Program-made: the position numbers and the translations under genes
The notes under the pieces: generated by a model
Databases searched by the model: none
Told to the model about the DNA's origin: nothing
What the model saw: only the letters and a program-made list of their open reading frames with translations
Source of the DNA: Carex sylvatica
Lineage: Eukaryota; Streptophyta; Magnoliopsida; Poales; Cyperaceae
Direction: 5' to 3'
Assembly: GCA_964058845.1 (NCBI GenBank)
Contig: CAXKVR010000195.1
Coordinates: forward strand, 62,001-126,000
DNA length: 64,000 nucleotides
Shown: positions 1-62,589 of the stretch, piece after piece
Layout: each line of letters begins with the position of its first letter
Position numbering within the stretch: position 1 is the stretch's first letter

Positions 1-3000
1 ATATGGGCAGTTTGGAGAACCCGCCATTCGTAGTTATACCCAACAGATCCTTTCGGGTTTGGCCTATTTGCATGCAGAAAACACAGTGCATCGGTACTGA
101 CATCTTACTTTCCTATTTTTCACTTGTTTTTTCTTCGTTGAGTTTATTTTTTATATGCTTTCTAGCATGATTTACTGATGATGCATTTTTTATATTCACA
201 GGGATATCAAAGGTGCAAATATACTTGTAGATCCTAATGGCCGTGTCAAGCTGGCTGATTTTGGGATGGCTAAACATGTAAGTCACTATGATAGAAACTG
301 AGATATGATTACTTAATCAGCGAAATCTATGTTGTAGTTTCCATTTATTTTAAAACACTGAAGACATACTGATATGTTTGGCGAATCCATATTTGCCTCT
401 TTGTATTGAGCATGACTGCATTTCATGATTAATTGACATTATCAAGTTTGGATGTCTTATTTATTCTACTCTTACTATTTCCAGATATCTGGGCAATCAT
501 GCCCTTTTTCATTCAAGGGTAGCCCCTATTGGATGGCTCCTGAGGTAATATATTTCATAAATTATTTGGTGACAATTTGAGGATTGCTCCACGGACACCA
601 CACCCTTAGTGAACTAAGAAAAGACACCATATCCACAAATACTTTTCTTAGTTCCACTCAAAAGGTGCATGTGAAATAAATTGATGTTCTAAGGGTGCTG
701 GCAGACCACGGAAGCATGTAACTCGAATTACTACCATTTAATTTTACTAATTTCTTTAATGGAATTTTTAATCAATTATTCTTCCTCGTTTTTCTCTTAT
801 TCTTGTCCTTTTAATGGTTTGTATAGGTTATAAAAAATGCAAGTGGTTGTAATCTTGCTGTCGATATTTGGAGCTTAGGATGCACTGTCCTTGAGATGGC
901 CACCTCAAAGCCACCGTGGAGCCAATACGAGGGGGTCAGTATCTACAATATAATTTGCTTTCGTCATTTTCCTACTATATCTTGGATAACTATCCGGGGC
1001 GGAATTAGAAAATTTAGATGGGGGGCAGTACTGTAAAATGAATAATATAAATATGTGGAATTCTAACCACTAGGCTACAAGCACAAGCTTGACATTTTAT
1101 GAGGGGGGACTAAACTCAAGGGTAAATTTCACTGGAGGTCACTAAACTTTGTCCTTTGTCCCGAATTGGTCACTCGAGTTTGATTTGTCCCTCTGTAGCC
1201 ACTGACTTTTTATTTGTCCCGATCAAGTCACTCTATAACTTTTCCAAAATACTAATGGATTAGGCTAATCCATCTCCATATCACTTTATATTTTATTAGT
1301 TTTTTGGATGGAAAAGTTACATAGTGACTTGATTGGGACAAATGAAAAGTTCAGTGGCTACGGAGGGACAAATCAAACTTGAGTGACCAATTTGTGACAA
1401 AGTACAAAGTTTAGTGACCTCCGGCAAATTTTACCCTAAACTAAATAAAAATTTAAAAAGAAGAAGAAGAAACTTTAATTAAATTTCAATATACATTATT
1501 AAAAAAAATTAAATCATGGATGTGGCTAAGCACCCCCTGGCTAACCTTTAGATCCGCCCCTGATAACCATATCAGATGTTTTGTATTGGGAAATGCTAGT
1601 ATTGGCAATATCAGTCTTTTCTAACAAATACATAAACTAGACAACTGTCAGTATGGCACTGGTAACAGTTTGTTTTGGACCAAGCCTTCCTAATTGATGT
1701 TTTGACGAAATTCCCAGCAGATGCTCAACACATTCCCAACATGTACTAGATCAATAAATCTTTGATATTTAGCACCAGGAAATATTTTACCCACGAGTTC
1801 ATTTAGATGTAAGAGCATCTGCATCTGCATTGGAATTTTTTTTTATCTCTAAAGTACACGTGGCACTTCCTATTGTAATTTTGGGATGTAGCGTAATTTC
1901 TAATTTAGTAAGTTTTCTATTAATGAAATCGCTTTCTAACTATTTCTATTGGTTCTTGTTCTCTCTTCCATAATAATAATTACAACGTGGTCAGTAAAAG
2001 AAATTAAAAGTTAATTGCATGAGTGTAGAGCTTTAGAAATTTAAATCAACATAATTTCTACTTAGTGCTTGACAGTAATTTTTAATTTCTTCTTTATTAT
2101 ACTGATGTAGATGCTCTGAGAGTACTAACAGGAGTTCACCTACCTTTTATTAATGATCTTTTTCTACCAAATTTTATGTATTTTCTTTTTACTATTTTTA
2201 TTTTTGGGACAGATTGCAGCTATGTTTAAGATTGGAAACAGCAAAGAGCTTCCTGCAATACCAGACAATCTCTCTGAAGAGGGCAAAGACTTCATAAGGC
2301 AATGTTTGCAGCGGGACCCGGCCAAGCGCCCCACAGCAGCTGAGCTTCTCCAGCACCCATTTGTCAAAGCTGCTGTGCCACTAGAGAAGTCCACTACCTT
2401 TTCTGATCCTCTGGTAGACCGCCTAGCCCTTGCGCCGAGCGCATCTGTTCCGAAGGTATGTTCTATTGAGTTGAATAAATTCAAATTAGCCTTTTAAATT
2501 GTACATGTTTTTTTTTTCATCAGTTAAGGAAATGTTTTTAATTGTCTTGTTGTTTTGTACCTTTTGTTTTGGTCAGGGAGGCAGTCATTTAAGACACCTG
2601 TCTTCTTTAGGCACTGAAGGGCGGACAATTCAACAAAGACGAGGCGCCAAACTTACTTCCATTTCCAGGTACGCTAACTTTGTACGAGTTCCATACTAAA
2701 TCTCATACTTCATCAGATAAGGTGCACTACGAATTCCACAAGTACAGCTGTAGTTGGTGTTTTACTTTTGGCAATAGGAAAAATTATAACATTAGCTGAA
2801 AATCTGAGTATTACCATGCTAAGTTTGGACATAAAATATGCAACGGTATGCAGGTGTAGAGAAATTTCCTATCTTTCACTTGAATTTTTGGGATTGCATG
2901 TAGTAAATGAACGGCAACTGTTTGTTTTGACAAAATATCTTTGTTTCTTGGCAGTGATATCCACCTGCGGAACAACATATCATGCCCCGTCTCACCGACC

Positions 3001-3390
3001 CGAAGCCCGCTGCTGAGGTCAAGGTCACCCCATAACGGCTATATGACACCTTCTCCTATATCAAGCCCTAGAACAACATCGGGTGCCTCCACCCCTCTTA
3101 CAGGTGGAACTGGCGCTGTTCCTTTCAACAACCTAAGCCATCAGTCGTCCTATTACTCGGCCAATGACGGCTATGTCCCTTCTATAAGAGTTCAACAATG
3201 CTCTCCAGCAGCATTTCGTGAGAGAATCATATCTGAATCTGACATACTTAGCCCCCATTTTGGTAAAATGGTCCATGGAAATGTGCGGGATCCATATGAC
3301 AGCCAATCAGTGGCTGATACTGGGTCCCGCAGGATCAAATTGAACCCATCACTGGACCTTAGACCTGGTAACACAACCCGAGGTTACTGA
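1..3390 (+). CDS. YDA: YODA-like MAP kinase kinase kinase, 3' part (5' end outside window)
   Basis: Seven exons fit in one frame: 1-93, 202-277, 485-544, 827-934, 2213-2455, 2577-2668 and 2955-3390 (TGA 3388-3390), all with GT-AG introns. The first exons give the second half of a kinase domain: [10 protein letters not shown] catalytic loop split across exons 1 and 2, DFGMAKH, the activation segment ending GSPYWMAPE, then a substrate lobe with [13 protein letters not shown] and [13 protein letters not shown]. The tail is Ser/Pro-rich, with [14 protein letters not shown] and a C terminus reading SLDLRPG; this tail separates YODA from MAPKKK3/5-type relatives. In the family the kinase acts above MKK4/5 and MPK3/6 in stomatal and embryo patterning. 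The N-terminal regulatory region and kinase subdomains I-V lie upstream of the window. The 1278-bp intron between exons 4 and 5 carries nested repeats. The 3' UTR probably covers several hundred bases after 3390; no firm poly(A) site was chosen. Confidence 0.92.
995..1561. mobile_element. DNA-transposon-like repeat in YDA intron, holding a nested MITE
   Basis: Both ends carry a short inverted motif around GGGGCGGA (996-1003, and TCCGCCCC near 1553-1560). The interior resembles a second copy in the U-box kinase gene at 16994-17203: shared stretches include CTACAAGCACA, GACATTTTATGAG-like sequence and GGCTAAGCACCCC. The YDA copy is longer because another element (1119-1437) sits inside it. The superfamily could not be assigned. 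Confidence 0.6.
1119..1437. repeat. MITE with long terminal inverted repeats, nested in the 995-1561 repeat
   Basis: The left end reads AGGGTAAATTTCACTGGAGG and the right end, reverse-complemented, reads AGGGTAAAATTTGCCGGAGG. Pairing continues inwards over more than 100 bases per arm (for example GTCACTAAACTTTG and GGGACAAAT blocks on both sides), so about 319 bp can fold into one hairpin. No coding capacity. It interrupts a repeat whose other copy lacks it, which shows it arrived later. Confidence 0.75.
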
Positions 3391-5053
3391 GGTAACAGTG
3401 ACAAGCTGTGGAGTTAATTTATTTTGTAACTAATTTGAAAAAGAAAAAAAATACTATGAAAAAGAAATTGTTTCAATGTTGGATGGACTCTGCATTGGAG
3501 GGCGATTGCTGGCATCTGGTTTATTGGTATTTTTTTTCTTCTCGTATCTATTTTTTTTTATATGTTTTTACATAAGAGAATTATTTATGATGTCTGATTT
3601 TATTCTTCTTCATTTATAGGTGAGTACTAACAAGATAGAGGCTGTAATGTTATCTCCACCGTGCCGTGCATGACAAGGCCCAAACTAAGTAGATTTAGAC
3701 CTCCAATACCTCTTCTTCTTTTTTTCTTCTTCTTTTTAAATATCTCAAGGGTCTGAATCAGTTGTTGTACAGAAGGTAAGTTCTGAATGTGGGGTCCAGA
3801 TTTTGCATTGGAAAGAGTGAGCAAGAGATTTACCTGACCTGAAGTTAAATTTATTTCAACTAAAATTAGAAGCTAATGTTGTAAGTCAGCTGTATTTAAC
3901 CTTCTTCTGTTACTTTAATCTCACTCCTGTACCAATTCCTGCTGCAATTTTAGGAAGTTATCAATGGGTTTAAATTAAAAAAAAAAAAAAAAAAAAATGC
4001 AGCTTCCAATATGTTACAGTGTTCTTGTACAGTCTTCCAACCATCTTTGACATATATTTAGTAGTAAATGATGGAATGCCTTGTGTAGCTGTCATTTTTG
4101 TCCTCTGAGATAGAGATCATAATATAATTTGTGATTTGTGAATGGACCATGCTCCAATGAAGCAATGTGGTAATTTGGATTTGAAAACCGAATTAATATT
4201 AATCTGTAGTATGTAGTACGGAGCAATCAGCTTTTAACATTTAACATAGTTTACGTTTACGCATACACTGAAATTAGCACCTAATGTTGTGTTGGATCTG
4301 CGGCCGGAATGTACATGTTGGCAGAAGTAGAACTTGGGAGAAAAATGGAGATGATGATGGAGAGAGGAAAAGTGAAAAATGACAGGGAATCATGCTGCAG
4401 TAAAATTTTAAATACACGAAATTCAAACGGTAAGTAAGACAATTCATGGAACATTGGAACCCACAACCTTTGTGAATTGTGAGCATGTGAGCATGAGGTC
4501 CCCACATGAATTAGGTGACCATGTGAGCATGAGCCACACCTACCCCTATCTTCCCTTTGATGATGCAAATTGTTTGGTAACGGCTATATTATTTCTTTTT
4601 GCCAAGTCTCTAACTTCATCCATGCAAAAATAATAACTTATCTTCTTTTCTTTTGTTAATAACAAATTAAATACAGGCTTACTAATTTTTGTGGTTTGGT
4701 ACGTTGTTCCTTTTTAGTTTTTAATACCTTAGACATTTTTTATACTATGAATATACAACTACCTTTCTCTTTGACCACATTATACATACCTTTCTGCATA
4801 GGCACCAAGGTTACCAAGTTTTTCTTTGAGTACAATTTAGAACGTTGTCAATTTGACCGTAATTTAACCCCCTTAATTTTTTTTTTTTTTTTTTTTTAAC
4901 TTGCCGTTGCATTAACAAACAAACAAACGATTAAAGAAAACAAGTGAAGCAACCAAGATACTCACTAATTCTAATTGAATCACTGACATCATGCACATAG
5001 AACTAGAAGTACTTAATTTACATTGAATAAACAAGAGAGGTTCTGGACTCAAC

Positions 5054-5100
<47 letters not shown>

Positions 5101-5196
5101 AGAGAAGAAAGGTTCAACAATCACTAGAAACTGATAGAAAGAAATTGACATGGAATTGAGTGAAGCCACATATTTTTCTCTGGTTGGATAATTAAG
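3391..5196. other. Convergent intergenic region between YDA and PIP1
   Basis: Holds the YDA 3' UTR at its left and the PIP1 3' UTR (minus strand) at its right. Contains a poly(A) run near 3977-3997, a poly(T) run near 4879-4898, and an (ATA)n microsatellite at about 5054-5097. No other gene was recognised. Confidence 0.7.
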
Positions 5197-5705
5197 TTAG
5201 GATTTGGAATGGAAGGGGATAGCTCTGATCACCACCTGGTGGTAGAGAGCAGCAAGTGCAGCGCCAATGAAGGGTCCCACCCAGAAGATCCACTGACAAC
5301 AAAAAAAATATCACAAAACATGACAAACACTCCTCCAATTATTAACAGAGACAACCAAAAAAAATTACAGTTTATTTCAAAACAAAACAAAAAATTACAG
5401 TTTAGTGAAACCAGTGTTGTGGTACAGGTACTGTGCGTCTAGACAACAATGTTTTGCTTTTATCTGGCGGATAGTGCCGACAGGTCCAGAATTTTTTTGT
5501 TTACAGAAATTAATATAAAATAATACAAGATATTTGATTCTCATTCTCATTCTATCCACAGAGCCACAAACAGTAGGATAATATCTAAAAATACAGACAC
5601 CGCAAGAATAAATATTTCATACAAAAAAATTTTAAAACTTTTTTGTAACTTAATTGGTTTCATTTATACAAGTCAATATATATAACATTATTTATGCAGC
5701 TAGCA

Positions 5706-13992: not shown

Positions 13993-16900
13993 TTAGTTGA
14001 TCATTGGCTTAGTTGCGGGAGGGAGCCATTCTAAAATAGCCGAACGAAGAGCCCGGTTGGGGATGAGATCATGGTGAACCAATTTTAGGTTGGTAACGGG
14101 AGAGGTGACCTGGCCGCTGTCCAACCATCCCTCTATAGCCTCTGCTTCGTATGTGAATCCATCTGCCGCAATATGCGGGTCTTTCATTACCTCCTGTATC
14201 AATCAATTACACAATTACACAATTACACAATTACATTAATTAGTTATGATACATGACATGCACAACTATTTTATTTTAACTTAATTAGTTAGTTAGGGAT
14301 AGATAGTTAATTTATGGAAAGCCGCAATATTCACCAGGCCTTCTAAATTAATCTTAAACTACTACTCATCACAAACTGGAATTTAAGTCTACCTGAAGAA
14401 TTGGGCACATAAAGTATGACGGTACATGCCGATTATCTGAGCCAGAGAGGAAAGGCAAAGAGTGGGCCGGCAATGCAGCTACCTTAATCATTGGCTTAAT
14501 CACCTGCCACACATCCCGCATCAAATCAGCGCGTTTCCTCCTACTCAGCTCCGTGCATCGAATCCCAAGGTGTGCCAGCTGGCTTGCCTGGACAAACGGC
14601 CACTCTCCAGCTGACGGGTCAATTGCTGAATGCAACTTCCCTGCCTCTATCGCTTCTTCGACTCTCGTCGAGATATTTAATGGTGTCCACCCTGTCAGCA
14701 GGCGTAGAATAATTATCCCAAATGAGTACACATCAGATTTCGGTGTCACTTCGCCGGTTCTTACAAACTCCGGGTCCATGTAGGCTAAAGTGCCCTTGGG
14801 ATTGGTGGTACGGTACATTGAACTTGTGGTTGTGTTAGATTGTATAAGCATTTGGCAGATGCCGAAATCACTCAGTTTACTGACAAGGTTCGCGTCAAGG
14901 AGGATGTTATCAGGTTTGAGGTCTCCATGAACCAGGGGCCGAGGCTGGTTGGAGTGAAGGAATATGAGAGCGGCACATATCTCACTGATGATCCGGGTAC
15001 GTTCCTGCCATGTCAGTGGCGGGGTATTGTTGGTGCACGCTAGGCGGTCCTCGAGACTCCTGTTTGGTAGATACTCGTAAACCAATGCGCAGGCCTCTGG
15101 GCATAATCCTATTAGGGTTACAAGATTCGGGTGCCTTACCTTGGTTAGCACCGCAACCTAAAGAAAATACTCAAAAATAAAAGAATAAAATATAGTTAGG
15201 ATTTAGGAATGTTATATAATTATAACAGTACTGATTCTTTTTCTCAAGATTTGCTGTTGAGAAACTTTCAATTTGATTATGAGAATTCCCTTTCTATAAA
15301 TAAGTGATCTGCATTCCCAATTCATGTTATTTCTACAGGTTCTCATAAAAAAGCATAGTTGTATTTTTTTTTTTCTTTCTATAAAAATGTGATCTGCATT
15401 CCCAATTCATGTTATTCTACAGGTTCTCATAAAAAAGCCATATTTGTATTTTTTTTAGGTGTAGTTGTGCAAATAAACTGTACTACAAACCAAAAATACA
15501 TATGATGTACATTTCTATGCCATACACGACCAGACATTATATTTCACATAACTTGGGATAAAAATTTGATGTAAGATCACCACTTGAACAATAATTTATC
15601 GGAAGCACGCATATTTTTTAAAACAGTTTTAATAGGTTAATGTAGGGAAGAGGGGACTGAACTTAGGAGAAAATGAAAATGCCTCTTCTGGGTTGTAAAC
15701 CCAAAAAATCCAAAACCGACACGTACTGGTAATAGCATTTCAGACTTGTTTAGTATTGAATTGGGACGAAGAACAAAATAGTTCCAAGAAAAACCTGTCA
15801 ATTCTTTGAGGTCTTTTCAGATATTCGTAAGTTAGAGGCGAGTCCTAAATAAATTGGTTACTTGACAATAAGACCCACAGTTATCTCAACAATTAATGTA
15901 TACGGCCTTTTGTCTTTATACTAAATGGATGAGGAAGATCAAACCTAATGGATAAACCAAAATGGTCAGAGAGATCAGATGCGGATCAGGTTATCTAATC
16001 TACCTCATCCACTGTAACCAAAAATTATGAAATAGTAGTGACCCAATTAGAAATCCATAATTTCGAGGTTTTTGAGGGGCATACATGAAATTCTCCTAAT
16101 AGGAAAGAAACAAGGTACCTCTTGCTGGAATTCAGATATTCCTTGATCTTCATCCTGGTGGAGTAACTTCACGGCAACTGGTGTACCCCTTAACAAGCCC
16201 TTGTATACACATCCGGAATCGCCTTCCCCGATCTTCATTTGATCACTAAACCCCCTAGTTGCCGACTCCAGCTCAGCATGTGAAAACTCCATGTTCAACT
16301 CTTTGCAGGCTGCCGGTACTGTCCGCTGTAGCATTGTCTTCTTTAGCTCCTCCACCTCATGCAAAGCCTCATTTCGCTCTTGTTGCAGATGCTCATGTTT
16401 TGACTTAAAAGACTGCATGAGATATCGTGTGGCCGAAAGCTTATCTTCTAGATCCTTTGTGGCCCGCTCCAGCTCTGCAATTCGTTGTTCATTTTTTGAT
16501 TTGCTTTCTTCTGCTTCCCGTAATTTGTCGATTATGTTATCTATTTGGCTCGTCATACGCTCGTTTTCTTGTCTCTCTTGGATTAACGCCTCTTCGAATC
16601 CCTGCCTCTTTTTAATCTCATTTTGGTATAAGGTGTCAGTTTCCCGTGCCTGCATGAAATGATTGTATCTATTACAACAACAACAACAACAACCAAGCAT
16701 TTAGTCCCAAACAAGTTGGGTTAGGCTAGAAATGATGATTGTATCTATTAAAATTACAAATTGAGAGGAAGGTTAGGATTATGAATTTATGATATTAAAT
16801 TAACCTTCTGGAGAGATGACAGTAAGTCCCTCTCAGCTCGTCTACGCTTGTTGGATTCTTCATATGCTTCCTTCTTTGCTGCTTCGACTTCATTTATTGC

Positions 16901-45229: not shown

Positions 45230-48200
45230 ATGGATCGAGATTGGATGTATGGAGGTCGTAATACCATAGAGTATTTGGAGGGTGTGAAAAGTTTCATAAA
45301 ATTTGCCGAGCAAGATATGAAGGCAAAGGGTGATGACACGATTCCGTGTCCATGCAAAGACTGTTTGAACTTGAAGAGGTTTCGCACTATTGAAACAGTA
45401 AAAAATCATTTGATTCATCGTGGTTTTAAAGAGCAATATGCACGTTGGACCAGGCATGGAGAGAGTTATGGAGAAACAAGCACCGCTGCTGGAATTGAGA
45501 TTGACCAGGAGGATGAGGATGCCAATGTTGATAGTGATCAGGAAATGGATGTGAATTATAATTTTAATCTGAATGACAATTTAGGAGAAATATTTAGTGA
45601 TGATGAAAATGACAATTTACAAAAGTTGTATGTTGAATCTGAAAAACCTTTGTTTCCTGGTTGTGATAATTTTACAAAAATGGATGCTATGTTAAAATTG
45701 TATAATTTAAAGGCAAGTAACCGTTGGAGTGATAAAAGTTTTACCGCTTTATTACAACTCTTAGGAGATATGCTCCCAGATGAGAACGAGTTACCAAGAT
45801 CATGTTATCAAGCCAAAAAATTATTGTGTCCTATGGGTCTAGATGTAGAAAGAATACATGCATGTCCGAACGATTGCATATTGTATAGGAAAGAATACAA
45901 TAAATGTGAATTTTGTCCTATATGTGGTGAATCTCGCTATAAAAGAAAGAACAAAACTGACGATAATGATGACACAGATAGAAAAGGACCTCCAGCAAAA
46001 GTGATATGGTATTTTCCCGTGATACCGAGATTCAAGCATTTGTTCAAAAATCGTAAGGACGCACAGTTGTTGCGTTGGCATGCCGATGTCCGAAAAACAG
46101 ATGGAAAACTCAGACACCCTGCTGATTCACCGCAATGGAGAAATATTGACAGAAAGTTCAAAAAAAAATTTGGTGATGAACCAAGAAACCTAATGCTTGG
46201 GTTAAGTTCGGATGGAGTGAACCCGCACAGTAACATGAGCAGTCAGCATAGCACGTGGGCAGTTTTATTATGTATTTATAACCTTCCTCCCTGGTTAACT
46301 ATGAAACGCAAGTACATTATGATGTCGTTACTAATTTCAAGCCCAAAACAACCCGAAAATGACATAGATGTGTATTTAGCACCGTTGATTGATGACTTGA
46401 AAAAATTATGGTGCGATGGGGTGCAAGTGTGGGATGCATACGGTAAAGAAAATTTCAAATTGCGAGCAATGATTTTTTGCACCATAAATGATTTTCCAGC
46501 ATATGGTAATTTGTCAGGTTATAGTAACAAAGGGAGGAAAGGTTGTCCTGTTTGTGAAGATGATACGGTTGACATTCGTTTAAAAAATTGCAAAAAAACA
46601 GTGTACATGGGTCACCGTAGGTTTCTTCCTCCTAATCACCCATATCGTAAGAAGAAGAAATCTTTCAATGGTGATTTTGAGACTGGACGAGCCCGTTCTC
46701 CACTGACCGGTAAGGAAGTGTATTCACGAGTTAAAGATATCAAAGTTCAATTCGGAAAATTTATTAAGAAAAAAACAGACCTGAAAGGTGAAACTTGGAA
46801 GAAGAGATCAATTTTTTGGGATTTACCATATTGGGAGGAGTTACAAGTGCGACATTGCCTTGATTTGATGCACATTGAAAAAAATGTATGTGAAAGCTTA
46901 GTTGGTTTGTTGTTGGGCATTTCGAAAAAGACCAAAGATGGATTAAATGCTCGCAAAGATATGGTCAGTATAGGCATAAAATGGAGAGAGGTTGCACCTG
47001 AACTGAGAAAAACCAAAGATGGATTAAATACTCGAACTTACCTTCCTCCAGCTTTGTACAATTTGTCAAAAGGCGAAAAGAGAAGGCTTTGCCAATGCCT
47101 TCATACTGTTAAAGTTCCTTCTGGATATTCTGCTAACATAAAAAAGCTAGTGTCAATAAAGGATTTAAAATTGACCGGGATGAAGTCTCACGACTGCCAT
47201 GTTTTGATGACACAAATGCTACCTATTGCAATCCGTGGTATACTTCTAGAAAAAGTACGGTTACCAATTTTAAAGCTTTGTTTTGTCTTTAATGCAATTT
47301 GTAGCAAGGTTATCGATCCCGAAAGTTTGGATGAATTGCAACGTGATGTTGTCGTCACTTTATGTGAGCTTGAAATATACTTCCCTCCGACCTTTTTTGA
47401 TATCATGGTTCACCTAATTGTTCACCTGGTCTATGAAATTAATCTTTGTGGTCCTGTGTTCTTGCGGTATATGTATCCATTCGAGAGATACATGGCTATC
47501 TTGAAGGGATATGTAAGAAATCGATATCGGCCCGAGGGGAGTATTGTCGAAGGTTATATTGCAGAAGAGGCTATCGAATTTTATAATAGTTATATAGCAG
47601 ATGTACAACCTATTGGTATTCCTAAATCATGCCATGAGGGCCAGGTTGAAGGTGTGGGAACCATTGGTTTGGAACCAATCGAGGCTGATAAGTCTTTACA
47701 TGAAAAAGCACACCTTTTGGTCTTACAGCACATGACATACATCTCTCCATACATTAATGAGCACAAAGCCATTTTGAAAGAACTTAATCCGACAAAAGGA
47801 GACTTGTGGATTACCAAAGAACATAATAGTAAGTTCACATAATGGATCAAAAACAAAGTTATTAGACAAAGCGAGGTGGAATTGGCAGATAAATCTATAA
47901 AATGGTTAGCAAGAGGTCCAACTTTTATTGTTAATACGTACCAAGCATATGACATCAATGAGTACACTTTTTACACAATAAAACAAGATGGAAAAAGCAC
48001 TAATTAAAGTAGTGGTGTAACTCTAGTAGCTATTTCAGAAGAATTCTCCAGATCTAAGGATGCTCGGGCAATACATGCGAAGAACTCATACTATAGTCAA
48101 ATTGAAGAAATATGGGAGCTCGATTACGTCAAATTTAAGATTCCGTTATTCCGGTGTAAATGGGTTGATAACCGCAGCGGTGTTCAAGTAGATAAGTACG

Positions 48201-52909: not shown

Positions 52910-53267
52910 CATATATATTGTGTCTGTGCAGTTGTGCACTGGCACCTCTTTTTCTATTTTGTGTGTAGCGAATGGAGAGGAGGATCAATTCTAAGTTTGC
53001 TTTTTCTACTAATTTATTAAACAAAATAAACAAGTGCTAATTAACTACAAAAATGAAAACCCATGGCGTTGTTGACATTTACAAGTTACAACCATCCATG
53101 TAAAGCAATTCTTAATCCCATTTCATTTTCGCAGCGTTGTCTCTTACGATTCTTCGAAAAAATGTTAAATCGATCATGCATGCATGTCTCTTTTCTTTTC
53201 TTTTCTTTTGTCATGATTGGTGCATGGTGCATGGCCCTTCCTCTGGAATGGAAGGGCAGATAAGATG
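52910..53267. other. Host sequence between the two related MULEs
   Basis: About 340 bases of sequence outside both target duplications. No gene recognised. Confidence 0.6.
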
Positions 53268-53828
53268 GAATTTTTTTGATAAACTATAATTAAGAAAATA
53301 ATTTTTATTAATTTAGCATGATTACTTTTTTTTTTAGAAAAATCATAAAGAACGAGAGCTACTCTTGGTCTCAATTTTGCCTTTTCTCAAGACCGAGAGT
53401 AGCTCTCGGTCTCACCATTTTTTTTTCTCAAGACCGAGAGTAGCTTTCCTTCTCACTATTTTTTTTCAATTTTCGTCGACGGCGCCACAGAAGATCTGAA
53501 AATAGCCAGACAATTTTATTTCACAGAAGGGCTCTGTCTCCTCCCATTTCCTTCTTCCTCTCTTCCTTCCTCTCTTCCTTCCTTTCTTCTTCTCAAACCG
53601 TTGTTCCATCATTTTTTTAACTCTCCAAATTAATGTAATTTTAATTCTAATTACATAAATTTGTGTATTTTTGAAAGAAGAACAAGAAAATCTTCAGATC
53701 TACAAGTTTCGTTCGGTATGTGTTTAATTCTCTTATTTTTGTTAAATAATTCGAAATTAAGTATGAATGATTTATGTAGTAATTGTAGTATAAATAAATA
53801 ATTTATGTAGTAATTGTAGTATAAATAA

Positions 53829-55020
53829 ATGGTTTATGTAGTAATTGAATTGGTTGAGTCAGTACCAATTGTTAGTCAGGCCAATAAAAATGTGGAGCAT
53901 GTGGATGAAACCAATGAGAAAACAACAATCTTAAAAAACTATATGCGTCTTGTATGGTTGAAAAGAAAATTTAACCTGTTGAATTTGGAACTAGTGGATG
54001 ACCAGGAGATAATCAATAAGTATACACGAGTATATGCAATGGACTTGTTCGGGTCTATAATGTTTTCGAATTCTAATTCAAGCTTTGTGTCATTAATGTA
54101 CTTACAATTCGTGAAAGATTTGGGTCCTCAAGGTGCCAACTACTACAACTGGGGAGGTGATGTTCTCGCTTGCCTGTATCGCGAGTTGTCACACGTATGC
54201 AAATATAAACCAGTTTTAATTCATGGTCCATTACTACTACTCCAGATGTGGTCTTGGACTCAATTTGCTATAGGCTGGTCTGTACCACATAACCCACAAT
54301 TTGACGGCGAAGTCATATATGAGAGACGAGCTTATGGAGCAAAGTGGACTATTCCGCATACTTGGGATGGTAACCCTGTGAGAGGTATATTTTAATAATA
54401 AATATTATGTTTATCCATATAAGTTTGTGTTGATTCAATATATAATTGTCATGTATTTACAACTTAGGCACAAAGCAATATCGAGATCAGTTTGAGAGTT
54501 TGAAGGTCAATGTTGTCAATTGAAGGCCATACAGGGATTACCAATACCTCCAACCTTGGGTCGGGATAAGAGACCAGGCATTATTTGCATGTCGTGTGTG
54601 GTGCATCCATTTTTGGGAGGCAGAGATTCACCTTCCCGAGAGGGTTTTTCAGTAGTTCGGATTATTTCAGGAAGTTCCTCCACTGGCTCCGCCATCCTTC
54701 AAATATCTAGAAGAGATTCGCAAATGGACATTCGCAAATGGGTTGTATGATGATGAACTCTCTGCGGACTGGACCGAACATTTTAGTGAATTAATCGCGG
54801 CACCTCCCCAGACTTTTGCACATCGGTTTGAAAATGGATAGCTTACTCCTTATCTTCCGGATAAGTACGATTTAATTTAAGATAGAAAATACAATATTTA
54901 CATTTAACAATGCTATGAAATAGTTATTAAGTTTCACTTTTTTTCAAGGTATCACGAGTATATGGAATGGTTCTTCATCAATGGCATGTATACAATTTTT
55001 CCAAATCAGGGCAATCCTGA
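53829..55020 (+). pseudogene. Plant mobile domain (PMD, MAIN/MAIL-like) gene within the MULE
   Basis: Exon one (53829-54385) codes for YTRVYAMDLFGSIMFSN, then YLQFVKDLGPQGANYYNWGG and VLACLYRELSHVCKYKP, then GPLLLLQMWSWTQF: the central PMD signature. After a GT-AG intron (54386-54468) the frame goes on with QYRDQFESLKVNVVN, then stops at 54521 (TGA where Trp is usual), 54653 and 54839, before HEYMEWFFINGMY from about 54950. PMD proteins of host type (MAIN, MAIL1) act in silencing and development; related domains travel on transposons. The N-terminal part of the domain is missing, and the first 20 or so codons match the transposase gene on the other strand. Three tandem units of about 32 bases (TTTATGTAGTAATTGTAGTA, 53773-53845) precede and overlap the start. 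Confidence 0.7.
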
Positions 55021-56416
55021 AATTTTGAGCCAGGCAATGCCCGAACCGACTGGCATACCGTTCTGACGACTCCATACAATGCAGAGGATAGGTGTCCAGC
55101 ATCTACACTTATAACTGGTCGGAGATATGGCCAGGATTGAATGCATGGACCAAAAGCCCATGCCACACGAGTGAAAATATGGACGCCCATACGCATAGAT
55201 GGTTCGTACTCAATTATGTATTTTGTGCCTAGGGTAGACATCTGAATTACACCGAGCAGAGAAGGTAGCAGTTTGTATGCTTTTTTCCAAGAACCAAATA
55301 AATCAGCAATAGCCAACTCCCTCCCTCTCCAAATCTTGTTGTATGAAGGCTGAACCGCTTTGTATACCTTTCAAACTGCAAATCGACATGCTTTAATTGA
55401 CATCTTCAGGTCCTCATGTAGACCAGGTTTGATTATATCTGCAATCATCCTGGCAGTCATCTGACGACTGTCTACTTTACAAGCAATACTGTAACAATTG
55501 TGCTCGTATGGGTTTGTTGCAATTGTTCAATTTTCCGTCTCAGTGGTTTTTGCATATAACCTCCATGGATACCCCTCTGCTCTACATATAACTACATAGC
55601 CAGTACGATTAGTATGAATTTGTTGTTATTCTAAGTTATGATCTAGGACAAATTCACCCAACTGGATTGAAGATTGGCTTTAGATTCAAACATCTGTCCC
55701 ACTGAAAATTGACCGTCAATTCTGGGTGGATAACCAAAAAATGATTCATCCTTGTACGGCATCGACACATCGTCATTAAATGCCGGAAAAAGATGCTGCA
55801 ATCCTTGATTAATAAAGAAAATAAACGTTTCTCACTCTTTCATTACATCTTGTATTCTAATTTGATCATCTATTTCAGCCATATCATCTTCCCCGACAAC
55901 TGGACCACTAAGGTCAGAGTTTGTGTCTGAGTTAGAGTTTGTATCTAAGCTAGTATTATTATTCAGCTCGTCAAAACGAGTTACCATATCATTCATTATC
56001 GATATTTCAGGGGTGTCATCATAATACATGGGTGAATCAGACACCTTTGTGTCTCTACTACTTCCAGGTACACTACCCGGATAAGGGTCATAATTGGTCT
56101 GACTAACAACTAGTACTGACTCAACCACTAATTCAAGAAGGTTAAAATTCAATACCGGAGTGGCATGTCCAAGCACCATGTGCCATATCCTTTCGTGGTC
56201 TATGTTATATAACTGGTATTTTTCTGCTGAGTCAGGTGGTGCCGTGTTCAAACGAGCCCTAATTGTCAGATCGAACTGGCTAGGGAGCAAATGAATGCCA
56301 ACATATATATGTTTTCTTAGCTCATCAAGACTCGTTAAGTTAGTAACAAAAAATGTGTAGGTCGGTGCGTCTGAAATTTCGCATCTATGATAAACATTTA
56401 TTATAACTTCAGACAT
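54978..56416 (-). pseudogene. MuDR-type transposase, truncated after the first catalytic Asp
   Basis: 56416-55832 gives the N-terminal region (MSEVIINVYHRCEISDAPTY, HLLPSQFDLTIRARLN, then an acidic Ser/Asp stretch). 55832-55316 holds FSVGQMFESKANLQ, the DNA-binding-side motif of MuDR proteins, but is broken by stops. 55316-54978 gives DLFGSWKKAYKLLPSLLGVI, FTRVAWAFGPCIQSWPYLRP and VISVDAGHL, where ISVDA holds the first Asp of the DDE core. The second Asp, the Glu and the zinc finger are absent: sequence homologous to the transposase stops close to where the facing PMD gene ends. Confidence 0.8.
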
Positions 56417-57556
56417 TATCTGGAAAAAAAATTCACAATTACTAAATATATAAATAAATATAGTTTATTTAGTTTCAAATTAATCTACAGGTTTTCTCCA
56501 CTTTTATCAATAAAGAATAAAATAAATAAATATAAGGACAGTATATTGTAAGATATTAATACGAGTGTAGGATTTTGACAGAGTAACTTAACTTGGTTTT
56601 ATAAATTTCTAAAAATTTTATGGCTTAATATGTTTGTTGAACTTCACCTGATTTATTAGCCTCTATAGATTTATTTTAGACCAGAGACAAACTGACAACA
56701 AATTAATTTGAAAATTTTAGCAACTATAAAAAATAATTTTTATTTCAAAAATTGAACAATTACAACATAAATTGAACAACTACAACTACAACATAATTTT
56801 TATTTTAACAACTCAGGCTATTGGTAAAATGTTTTGGTTACAGACTATTGGTTACATAACCAAAAATACATTAACCACTCTGGAGTATTTTTTGGTAAAA
56901 TGCATTAAGACTATTGGTAAAATATTTTGGTTACAGACTATTGGTTACATAACCAAAAATACATTAACCACTCTAGAGTACTTTTTGATAAAATGCATTA
57001 ACTACAACTTTTTGTTTTAACCATTATGGAGTACTTTTTGGTAAAAAGGATCAAGCAATTTCAATCACAATCAACCGTCGATATCATTTTTAATTTTACA
57101 ACCTAAAATATGATCGTAATTGAAAAAAAAAACTTACTACAATCTTTAGATTAAAACTACCAATACAATGAAGAGGCCGAACTGTAAAAACACAATATTT
57201 CGTTGGAGCTTGATTATCAGCTAAAAATGACAGAGAAGAAAAAATTTAGAAGATCATGGGTTTTGAGTTTATATTAGACGGGAGAGAAAAGAATATGTAT
57301 AGTATAAAAAGAAAAGAAAAAAAGGGAGACCGAATGCTACTTTCGTTCTCGAGCAACAGCTATACACTCGCCGCACGGTTAGCTGACGAAAATTTTAAAA
57401 AAATGGTGAGACCGAGAACTACTCTCGGTCTTGAGAAAAGGCAAAATTGAGACCGAGAGTAGCTCTCGTTCTTTATGATTTTCTAAATAAAAATAATAAT
57501 AATCATGCTGAATTAATAAAAATTATTTCCTTAATTATGATTTATCAAAAAAATTC

Positions 57557-58731
57557 GATAAGATGTCACTAATTTAAAAAAAAAAAAAAGCAACCTAGCT
57601 CTTAATTTGGATCATTAATTAATGAGCGATGCATACCGACGCAAATATTAAACCATTAATTGGCGTGTGCACTCAAAAGAAATAGACAATTTAACGTTTT
57701 ATATTTGTTCTATTAAATGAAAGAGACCTCTATTAAATTCATTTTCTTTTTCTGATAAATTATTGATTTTTTTAAAAAGAAAAAAGTTGCGAATTGAAAA
57801 GATCCTTTTCTCTCTCGTGAATTTTTGCTGTCGCACCTGCCACATGTCATAATCTGCAAGTTTTCTCGAGAAAAGGAAAGAAAACTATAAAACGAAATAA
57901 AAAAAAAGAAGGGAGAGAGAGAGGCAGTTGTCTGTGACTCCCTACTTGATTTGAAGCGCTAAAAAATTAAATTAAAGAAAGAAAAAAGAGACACGCAGCG
58001 CAGCCCACCAATTCAAGGAAAAGGAAAAAGTCCCCGTCAATGTACAGTGTCTCTTTCATTCATTCATTCATTCATTCCCACGAGAAAGAGAGAGATAGAA
58101 GAGAAGAGAGAGATGTGATGGCGTGAAAGCTCGCTCTTTTGACAGTTCCAACAAACTCCCGCCTCCCCATCTTCTCTCTTTTCTCTTCTTCTCTTCCTCT
58201 CCATCTCCTCCCGCCTTTATGCGATCAAAGAGAGATCCTTCTTCCTTCATCTCTCTTTCATATTTGATATCATCTTTCATGGTTGTTCTGTTTAATTACT
58301 TGGAATGAGTTGCTTTTGTCGGGAAAGAAATAAGCTATTCGGTGCATTGTAAATACAAATATTCATTTCGATTGTCTGATGCTCTGGATTTCTCTCTCAA
58401 CACACACACACAAATTGACCCTCTTCATTTCAGATTAATTAGTCTTCTCCTCTAATTTTGTTCAGAGTCAACATCAACAAAGGTAATCAATCATTTGTTT
58501 TGTTGCTTTCACCTCAATTTCATGATTGTGCTTTATTCATCATTTTTTATCCCTCTAAAACTTGCCCTTTATCTGCAAAACCAAACTCTCTTTTTTTTTC
58601 TCAATATATAAATAAGTTCATATTGGCTCTTTGCCTTTGACCAACAATGTTAGATGGTATCTAAATGCAAAATATGACCTCCAAGTCTCTACTGACCTCT
58701 CACTTTTTATACAGTTATTTATAAGTGTATT
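57557..58731 (+). promoter_or_regulatory. Promoter and leader of the DUF4378 gene
   Basis: Holds the right target duplication of the MULE, AT-rich sequence, a purine-rich block (57890-58000), a (CATT)n tract (58057-58077) and a CT-rich leader from about 58120. A 5'-UTR intron is likely: donor AAAG|GTAATC at 58483, acceptor ATACAG at 58712. The MULE ends 1175 bases before the start codon. Confidence 0.55.
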
Positions 58732-61700: not shown

Positions 61701-62589
61701 TCAGCTTCTTTGCATGATGAAGTTGTACAGGATGATATTGTCAAATTTACTTCAATATCTACAAAGCATGGTAACTTTTTATGGGTCAAAGTTTACACAT
61801 CATGTATTTTAATCATTTCGTACCAGCACCTGACCCGTTTGTACTTAGCTTCTATACTGAACAACAACAAAGCCTTAAGTCCCAAACAAGTTGGGGTAGG
61901 CTAGAAATAAACCCAACCAGAGGAGGGTTTCATTTCCATAAAAGGTACTTGAATTTCCCAAACATCTATATATTTTTGTCAAATATTAAACTAATCTGAA
62001 ATAATGCCCATTTTCAGAAGAGCTACTACCTATACAACGAACAATAATTCGACTCAAAGAGTTTGACATCTCGTCTTTTCTTAACCCTACATACGAGACA
62101 CCTATTCTAGATGACAAAGAAATCCAGTATGAATTTGTCAGTGTGGTTGTAGAAGCATCGGGTTTGTGCAGAGCAGGCTCAGAGAGGTGGAGAGCTGATG
62201 ACCCACTACTCGACTCGTTCTTATATGATGAAATTGGAATTTCATATGATTACTCTGACAATTCAAAGTACCTTTTTGACCTAATAGAGGAAGTGTTGAA
62301 TGAGATAAGGAATAAATTTATCATTACCTCGCCTTGGGTTTGGTCTATTCATAAAATAGTACAGTCTGTGCCAGTGGGCGAAGACCTAATTAAGGAAGTG
62401 TGTAAAGGTATTGATTTGCATTTAAAGCACAAGTTTCCGTGCACACTTGATCAAATAGTTGCAAAAGATATGGAGTATCGGTCCTGGATGGACACTCGAC
62501 CTGATATTGAGGTCATTGATTTAGAAATTGGAGATGATATATTAGATGATCTACTAGAAGAAGCTATTTTTGACTTGTGGTTTTTATAG
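58732..62589 (+). CDS. DUF4378-domain protein (TRM/LONGIFOLIA-like superfamily), 689 residues
   Basis: Six coding exons keep one frame: 58732-58894, 59027-59082, 59821-60801, 61389-61463, 61548-61770 and 62018-62589. The acceptor of exon 4 is TAGAG|GTAGG; the earlier AG would bring an immediate stop. The C terminus (LFDLIEEVLNEIRNKF, VGEDLIKEVCKGIDLHL, DMEYRSWMDTRPDIEVIDLE, DDLLEEAIFDLW) is a typical DUF4378 domain. The long exon 3 is Ser/Lys/Glu-rich and disordered, with MQSVKTLMEEEMAKLIPE near its start. Members with this end include TRM/LONGIFOLIA proteins that bind TONNEAU1 and microtubules, but no M-motif assignment was made here, so the role is only inferred. Without splicing, exon 3 would read on to 60906. 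The start pair ATGATG (58732) leaves a one-residue uncertainty. Introns hold a MITE (59333-59724), a smaller one (60900-61014) and a short repeat (61861-61909). Confidence 0.85.
59333..59724. repeat. Palindromic MITE (family P) in intron 2 of the DUF4378 gene
   Basis: Left end GAGTGAGGTTATGGTACCAT and right end, inverted, GAGGGAGGCTGCGGTACTAT. It is closest to the BCAT-intron copy (21388-21779), sharing the end GCGCTATGCATAGTACCGNA and the same core. Confidence 0.8.
60900..61014. repeat. 115-bp MITE in intron 3 of the DUF4378 gene
   Basis: Ends GAGGTAACAGAAG and, inverted, GAGGTAACGGAAT, followed on both arms by sequence near GATCC. It resembles the BCAT intron 7 element in end and interior motifs. 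It starts 99 bases after the exon 3 donor. Confidence 0.6.
61861..61909. repeat. Short interspersed repeat, second copy, in intron 5 of the DUF4378 gene
   Basis: ACAACAACAA, then TTAAGTCCCAAACAAGTTGG and GGTAGGCTAGAAAT, matching 16677-16731. Confidence 0.6.

What the first reader, a model, noticed from the sequence alone, without database searches (positions are those of the whole stretch)
53268..57556. A MULE that unites a PMD gene and a MuDR-type transposase, with a perfect 9-bp target duplication
Seen directly: inverted ends, GATAAGATG on both sides, and two convergent pseudogenes inside. The transposase is cut off just after its first catalytic Asp, at the place where the facing PMD gene ends, and the PMD gene lacks its own N-terminal part. 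This suggests a composite made by joining halves of two elements (or a PMD cargo replacing the transposase C terminus), which then moved as one unit. PMD genes on transposons are known as a class; this arrangement could be an undescribed lineage.
Basis: partly seen in the sequence, partly recalled or inferred. Interest (0 to 1): 0.85.

Follow-up and report, generated by a model that had tools for sequence, protein, structure and literature searches.

The report
Deleted copy of two-gene Mutator transposon
This is a broken copy of an ordinary plant jumping gene that normally carries two facing genes, a transposase and a "plant mobile domain" gene; it looks like a patchwork only because internal pieces were lost and clumsily repaired.

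Summary
In detail: a 4289-bp Mutator-like element (53268-57556) with ~160-bp inverted ends, a perfect 9-bp duplication, and facing remnants of a PMD gene and a mudrA transposase. The composite origin does not. In the same genome (a sedge near Carex), 114 of 180 PMD loci face a MULE transposase within 8 kb; 1 diverges, 1 is parallel, 64 have none found. C347, with the same ends (7085 bp, perfect 9-bp duplication), has both genes facing, though its mudrA lacks about 1 kb; C474 (over 7.7 kb, right end beyond the contig) has the fuller pair. The window copy is an internal-deletion derivative: it lost the PMD 5' exon and mudrA beyond the first catalytic Asp, and one junction holds a 35-bp inverted copy of its own mudrA (32/35; null maximum 24), as in interrupted gap repair. 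PMD and mudrA have co-diverged through five lineages (Mantel r 0.89, 42 pairs). PMD antisense to the MULE transposase is already catalogued (PMC6446971, passages). New: within lineage I the two halves differ threefold in silent divergence, suggesting older module exchange.

The parts
53259..53267 (.). target-site duplication, left copy GATAAGATG
57557..57565 (.). target-site duplication, right copy GATAAGATG
53268..53424 (+). left terminal inverted repeat (PMD side), with 23-bp near-palindromes such as AGACCGAGAGTAGCTCTCGGTCT
57397..57556 (-). right terminal inverted repeat (mudrA side)
53268..53852 (+). PMD-side end segment, matches C347 7085-6473 (73.6%)
53851..53885 (+). 35-bp filler at the PMD 5' deletion junction: inverted copy of mudrA sequence 56093-56127 (32/35)
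   Evidence: (I5)
53884..55048 (+). PMD gene remnant (lacks the first exon and the start of the second), 87.7% to C474, PF10536 from profile position 74
55049..55075 (-). 27-bp mudrA scrap (26/27 to C474), collinear: retained island or filler
55087..56439 (-). mudrA remnant, cut about five residues after the Asp of VDAGH; about 91% to C347 and C474
56440..57396 (.). mudrA-side non-coding segment, partly rearranged against C347 and C474; much of it shared with the 990-bp element C447

Best explanation
It is an internally deleted, non-autonomous copy of a two-gene Mutator-like element whose fuller form is longer than 7.7 kb: TIR - mudrA > ... < PMD - TIR. In fuller copies, mudrA (MuDR DNA-binding domain, MULE DDE domain, SWIM-like exon) and a spliced PMD gene run inward from the two ends and meet tail to tail. 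MURA would bind the long, palindrome-bearing ends and cut and paste the element with a 9-bp duplication (inferred from the MULE superfamily). The PMD protein is probably a helper, for example against host silencing, in the place that mudrB has in maize MuDR (inferred). This copy lost about 1.3 kb at the PMD 5' side (against C347) and about 2.5 kb between the genes (against C474), probably by interrupted gap repair after an excision, which left a 35-bp filler copied from its own mudrA. It can make neither whole protein but keeps ends that a transposase could use in trans (inferred).
For: C347:5107-12191 has the same ends, a perfect 9-bp TSD TAAACCGTA and both genes facing. Collinear blastn of the window copy on C347 and C474, with gaps at C347 5163-6472 and at C474-locus 2948-3713 and 3741-5437. 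C474 shows what is missing: PMD exon 1 (PF10536 1-59, 3.6e-22), MULE (3.9e-13), DBD_Tnp_Mut (3.1e-9) and a SWIM-like exon. 114 of 180 PMD loci face a MULE transposase within 8 kb, 1 divergent, 1 same strand, 64 none found; about 10.7 expected in any orientation under uniform placing. The filler matches 32/35 against a maximum of 24 over 1510 other overlapping 35-mers and 24 in 300 shuffles. PMD and mudrA distances correlate over 42 pairs (r 0.89; 0 of 2000 permutations). PMD dN/dS is 0.41-0.60 in 10 lineage-I pairs of PMD-stop-free copies, mudrA 0.22-0.38 in 8.
Against: No element with two intact genes and both ends was read: C347 lacks about 1 kb of mudrA and has stops in both genes, and C474 runs off its contig. 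The mudrA-side 5' region of the window copy is not a simple deletion: it has 93-bp repeats and about 450 bp without a match in C347 or C474. No second copy with the same junctions was found, so whether the deletions came before or after insertion is unknown. The 27-bp scrap cannot be told from filler. The SWIM hit of C474 is below the curated cut-off (18.2 against 19.6 bits). Over all lineage-I copies dN/dS ranges up to 1.06 (PMD, 65 pairs) and 1.13 (mudrA, 55 pairs), and the lineage-II PMD median is 0.70, so constraint is modest. The helper role of PMD was not tested.
Confidence: 0.9

Rival explanations
1. One reading: halves of a mudrA element and a PMD element were joined, and the joint unit then transposed.
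For: Both genes are truncated close to the point where they meet, and the flanking duplication is perfect. In lineage I the silent divergence of PMD and mudrA differs threefold between subfamilies A and B, so halves may have been exchanged at some time. Two single-ended places show only one gene: C21 with PMD, C808 with a mudrA piece.
Against: Both genes face each other inside the 7085-bp element with the same ends and at 114 of 180 PMD loci. Of the 18 other paired elements with these ends, none shows a hit to only one gene; all 18 show neither, in capped hit lists.
Confidence: 0.04
2. Pack-MULE style capture: PMD is a host gene fragment picked up as passenger by a deleted MULE.
For: PMD proteins exist as host genes (MAIN, MAIL1), and MULEs capture genes (PMC5418596, passages).
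Against: PMD accompanies mudrA in five lineages with congruent groups, 42 of 42 nearest neighbours within group for both genes, and dN/dS in PMD-stop-free lineage-I copies is below 1. A passenger would be lost or vary.
Confidence: 0.04
3. A variant of the main reading: the deletions with filler came from ordinary double-strand-break end joining in the resident copy, not from transposon gap repair.
For: Filler DNA copied from nearby sequence is typical of plant end joining (PMC2686159, passages).
Against: At least two separate internal deletions, both inside the ends, in a family where 18 of 20 paired copies are short and show neither gene and C347 has its own internal loss: this fits repair after excision somewhat better. 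No result decides.
Confidence: 0.35

Closest known systems
MULE clades 42 (MULE-Solanaceae_1), 47 (MULE-Monocots), 48 (MDR), 49 (MUDRAVI2) and 50 (MUDR) of PMC6446971 (2019; passages of text and table seen)
   Same: Transposase with a zinc finger (mostly SWIM) and an additional PMD, tabulated as '(antisens)', 'sometimes antisense', 'often antisense' or 'in antisense for most of them'; TSD 9 or 9-10 bp where given; TIRs of tens to hundreds of bp where given
   Different: The table refers to RepBase entries; a sedge family is not named in the passages seen. The present copy lacks most of both genes. Placement in one of these clades could not be tested.
Maize MuDR (mudrA + mudrB)
   Same: Long TIRs, 9-bp duplication, transposase gene facing a second gene (recalled in part; mudrB's opposite direction is in PMC9168764, passages); internal-deletion derivatives attributed to interrupted gap repair (Hsia and Schnable 1996, title seen in a reference list; content recalled)
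   Different: The second gene here has PF10536 (PMD); its relation to mudrB was not tested.
PMD-C of MULEs in grasses and Amborella (PMC5418596, passages)
   Same: PMD carried by MULEs; the paper speculates on anti-silencing use
   Different: Described there as fusion proteins with the transposase; here PMD is a separate gene on the other strand.
Barley Abermu (PMC9168764, passages)
   Same: A further ORF in the direction opposite to the transposase, without similarity to MURB
   Different: Described there as of unclear function; its relation to PMD was not tested.

Membership tests
Mutator-like elements (MULE) | long terminal inverted repeats | tested here: met
   about 157 bp at 92%
Mutator-like elements (MULE) | 8-11 bp target duplication | tested here: met
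   9/9 bp here. Of the 13 paired relatives: 5 perfect (C370, C34, C347; C447, C418 read by eye), 4 with one mismatch (C435, C803, C894; C279 by eye), 3 without a clear one (C288, C568, C3), 1 not read (C315)
Mutator-like elements (MULE) | MURA transposase with MULE DDE domain | tested here: inconclusive
   Truncated in this copy near the first Asp; present in the relative C474 (PF10551 3.9e-13, PF03108 3.1e-9), 91.5% identical over the shared part
Two-gene PMD MULEs (PMC6446971) | PMD gene antisense to the transposase | tested here: met
Two-gene PMD MULEs (PMC6446971) | transposase falls in the clades tabulated with PMD (42, 45-50) | not testable with these tools
   RepBase sequences are not held
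PMD-C fusion MULEs (PMC5418596) | PMD fused in frame to the transposase | tested here: not met
   opposite strands
Pack-MULE | captured host gene fragment and no transposase gene (recalled definition) | tested here: not met
   a mudrA remnant is present and PMD co-diverges with mudrA in relatives
MuDR | second gene is mudrB | not tested
   no mudrB sequence was compared; the second gene has PF10536

The most novel reading that the evidence does not exclude
PMD is an obligate second gene of a deep MULE group. It co-diverged with mudrA through at least five lineages in one sedge genome, under purifying selection, while evolving faster than the transposase. In lineage I the PMD and mudrA halves of different subfamilies were exchanged (PMD dS about 0.40 against mudrA dS about 0.12), as if a fast-evolving anti-silencing helper were swapped between transposon families in an arms race.
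Probability: 0.3. Interest if true: 0.55.

Novelty: new member of a known kind. Interest (0 to 1): 0.27.

Why it matters
The copy itself is an ordinary fossil. The family makes an open question testable: what TE-borne PMD does. Over a hundred places in one genome have a PMD facing a transposase, some with stop-free pieces, and the two genes have diverged together over long times. That argues for a function in the transposon rather than passenger status, alongside the anti-silencing idea that PMC5418596 put forward as speculation.

Tried and rejected
Composite of two elements: rejected because two-gene relatives exist. Host gene capture by this element: rejected. Assembly gap at the junctions: no N. 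The PMD tree with named proteins was too weakly supported to say whether all MULE PMDs descend from one capture: wheat, rice and Carex proteins interleave with lineages III-V, names are the sources' own, midpoint root. Sigma-70/terminator scan of the TIR: not meaningful for a plant, ignored. matK as host marker: only broken fragments on contig C29. GRAS gene as host marker: located but not fetched. Full subfamily-B elements to map exchange breakpoints: not fetched.

Limits: the genome searches for PMD, mudrA and MULE score only the best candidates (117 of 610, 150 of 335, 150 of 317, 150 of 305), so counts are lower bounds and 'no gene found' is not proof of absence. Element pairs and single ends were also paired and typed by hand. 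The 43 pairs for one search were chosen by me across the groups, not at random; C423 was dropped there (PMD piece of 53 aa), leaving 42. In one search the 'intact' set is 6 lineage-I copies chosen as stop-free in PMD; two of them have stops in mudrA, and pairs with dS at or below 0.05 were left out (10 of 15 PMD and 8 of 15 mudrA pairs kept).

Full report
Observation. The element 53268-57556 (4289 bp) is flanked by GATAAGATG on both sides without a mismatch. Its ends are inverted repeats of about 157 bp at 92%. They recur elsewhere in the genome: 48 matches for the left end and 41 for the right, where only the best 40 of 166 and 110 candidates were scored. Inside, a plus-strand PMD remnant hits PF10536 at 6.6e-18 from profile position 74 on, and a minus-strand mudrA remnant is recognised through relatives.

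Host. A window gene (DUF4378 domain at 62143-62586), joined from two exons as a search query, is 95% identical to a Carex rostrata protein and 68% identical to one of Rhynchospora tenuis, each over 66% of the query. I infer a sedge close to Carex. The held genome is 63.98 Mb in 950 contigs.

What other copies look like. From the end matches I paired 20 elements with both ends (by hand). Two of 20 contain PMD and mudrA hits, the window copy and C347:5107-12191, and each contains both; 18 of 20 are 348-2036 bp long with no PMD or mudrA hit in the capped lists. Of 16 unpaired ends, 14 show neither gene within 9 kb, C21 shows PMD only and C808 a mudrA piece only. C347 is 7085 bp with a perfect 9-bp duplication TAAACCGTA. 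It is not complete: against C474 it lacks about 1 kb of mudrA (C474-locus 3496-4526) and about 0.2 kb more, and has stops in both genes. C474, whose contig ends 7.7 kb in, before a right TIR, has a left end, an open 705-residue mudrA frame and PMD exons facing it. Its pieces hit PF03108, PF10551, a SWIM-like exon just below cut-off, and PF10536 in three exons.

The layout is general. Merging the family and protein searches gave 180 PMD loci and 237 transposase loci. 116 of 180 PMD loci have a transposase within 8 kb: 114 facing, 1 divergent, 1 on the same strand; 64 have none found. About 10.7 would be expected in any orientation if loci were placed uniformly. Seen from the transposases, 114 of 237 have a facing PMD as nearest within 8 kb, 4 a PMD in another orientation and 119 none found; both lists are truncated.

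The window copy as a deletion derivative. Against C347 and C474 the window element reads, from its left end: end segment (element 1-585 = C347 7085-6473); a 35-bp filler (584-618); PMD (617-1781 = C474 locus 6603-5438); a 27-bp mudrA scrap (1782-1808); 11 bp of unknown origin; mudrA (1820-3172 = C347 2801-1446); and a rearranged 5' region. Missing are C347 5163-6472, which in C474 terms includes PMD exon 1, and about 2.5 kb of C474 between the genes. The mudrA homology ends about five residues after the Asp of VDAGH. The filler matches the element's own mudrA at 56093-56127, in inverted orientation, at 32 of 35 positions; the best of 1510 other overlapping 35-mers reaches 24, and 300 shuffles reach 24. 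No listed relative begins before residue 20 of the PMD query, that is, within the filler. In the mudrA query the listed relatives stop by residue 108 of 130, with the DNA junction near residue 95; some of that extension is chance alignment, so this side is weaker evidence that the junction is private. Filler copied from nearby is known from plant break repair (PMC2686159, passages). Interrupted gap repair is a published explanation for MuDR deletions (Hsia and Schnable 1996: title seen in the reference list; content recalled).

Co-divergence. For 42 element pairs chosen by me across five lineages, PMD (169 positions) and mudrA (186 positions) distances correlate at r 0.89, with 0 of 2000 free and 0 of 2000 within-group permutations reaching it; within lineage I alone (14 copies) r is 0.64, with 0 of 5000 reaching it. 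All 42 nearest neighbours stay within the lineage for both genes. The trees agree on the split I+II against III+IV+V and differ on the order of III, IV and V. PMD dN/dS among 6 PMD-stop-free lineage-I copies is 0.41-0.60 over 10 pairs and mudrA 0.22-0.38 over 8. Over all 13 lineage-I copies tested the medians are 0.52 (65 pairs, up to 1.06) and 0.47 (55 pairs, up to 1.13), as expected with dead copies included. In lineage II they are 0.70 for PMD and 0.44 for mudrA (20 pairs each). So PMD behaves as a component of the transposon, under modest constraint.

An anomaly. Between subfamily A (C474, C76, C701) and B (C758, C187, C120, C336, C157), median silent divergence is 0.405 in PMD and 0.119 in mudrA, with PMD larger in 15 of 15 pairs; C347 and the window copy against B give 0.401 and 0.148, with PMD larger in 10 of 10. 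Elsewhere PMD is also usually the larger, but by less: ratios of medians about 1.1-1.6 within A, B, II, III and V, for the outlying copies of A and B, and for C9 against III; C119 against III, 0.109 to 0.041, is another exception. A single-pair Fisher test on approximate counts 35/115 and 15/130 gives 0.0004, but the pairs share one branch. Exchange of one half or gene conversion of mudrA explains the threefold gap best; a generally faster PMD contributes, and a local rate difference is not excluded.

Known kind. PMC6446971 (2019; passages of text and table) lists PMD as an extra feature of several angiosperm MULE clades, often antisense. PMC5418596 (2017; passages) reports PMD-C fused to MULE transposases in grasses and Amborella and speculates on anti-silencing. 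PMC8616336, PMC7156037, PMC9168764 and PMC2686159 were seen as passages; other papers only in search listings. I make no claim that the co-divergence or the module exchange is absent from print.

Mechanism. Shown: ends, duplication, gene layout, deletions, filler, co-divergence. Inferred: MURA acts on the ends, PMD helps (silencing escape or integration), the deletion arose by interrupted gap repair, and this copy could only move in trans.

Noticed in passing
window 45230-47842 (+): An 870-residue open frame with Transposase_21 (tnp2), DUF4218 and Transpos_assoc domains: a CACTA-type transposon gene (type recalled) without stops.
   Followed up: no
G000:C195:152557-156999 (outside the window, same contig): A second facing mudrA (962-residue open frame) and PMD pair, more distant in sequence (47% and 44% to the window's).
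   Followed up: no
G000 contigs C35, C190, C321, C387, C584, C665, C700, C843, C877: Nine places with identical scores, each with a 900-residue open mudrA frame facing PMD: likely a recent burst of one two-gene family.
   Followed up: no
window 53349-53453 and 57327-57472: Six copies (70-100% alike) of a 23-bp near-palindrome (AGACCGAGAGTAGCTCTCGGTCT) in the terminal regions, spaced 41 or 82 bp within each end; possible transposase binding sites.
   Followed up: no
lineage I pieces L067-L077 and L107-L117: PMD silent divergence is three times that of mudrA between subfamilies A and B.
   Followed up: partly
G000:C29:235906-236536: Broken matK-like fragments with several stops, as from a plastid DNA insertion in the nucleus (inferred).
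   Followed up: no
window 14000-16700 (-): Exons of a protein kinase gene (Pkinase domain); the last piece looks like a U-box (recalled motif).
   Followed up: no
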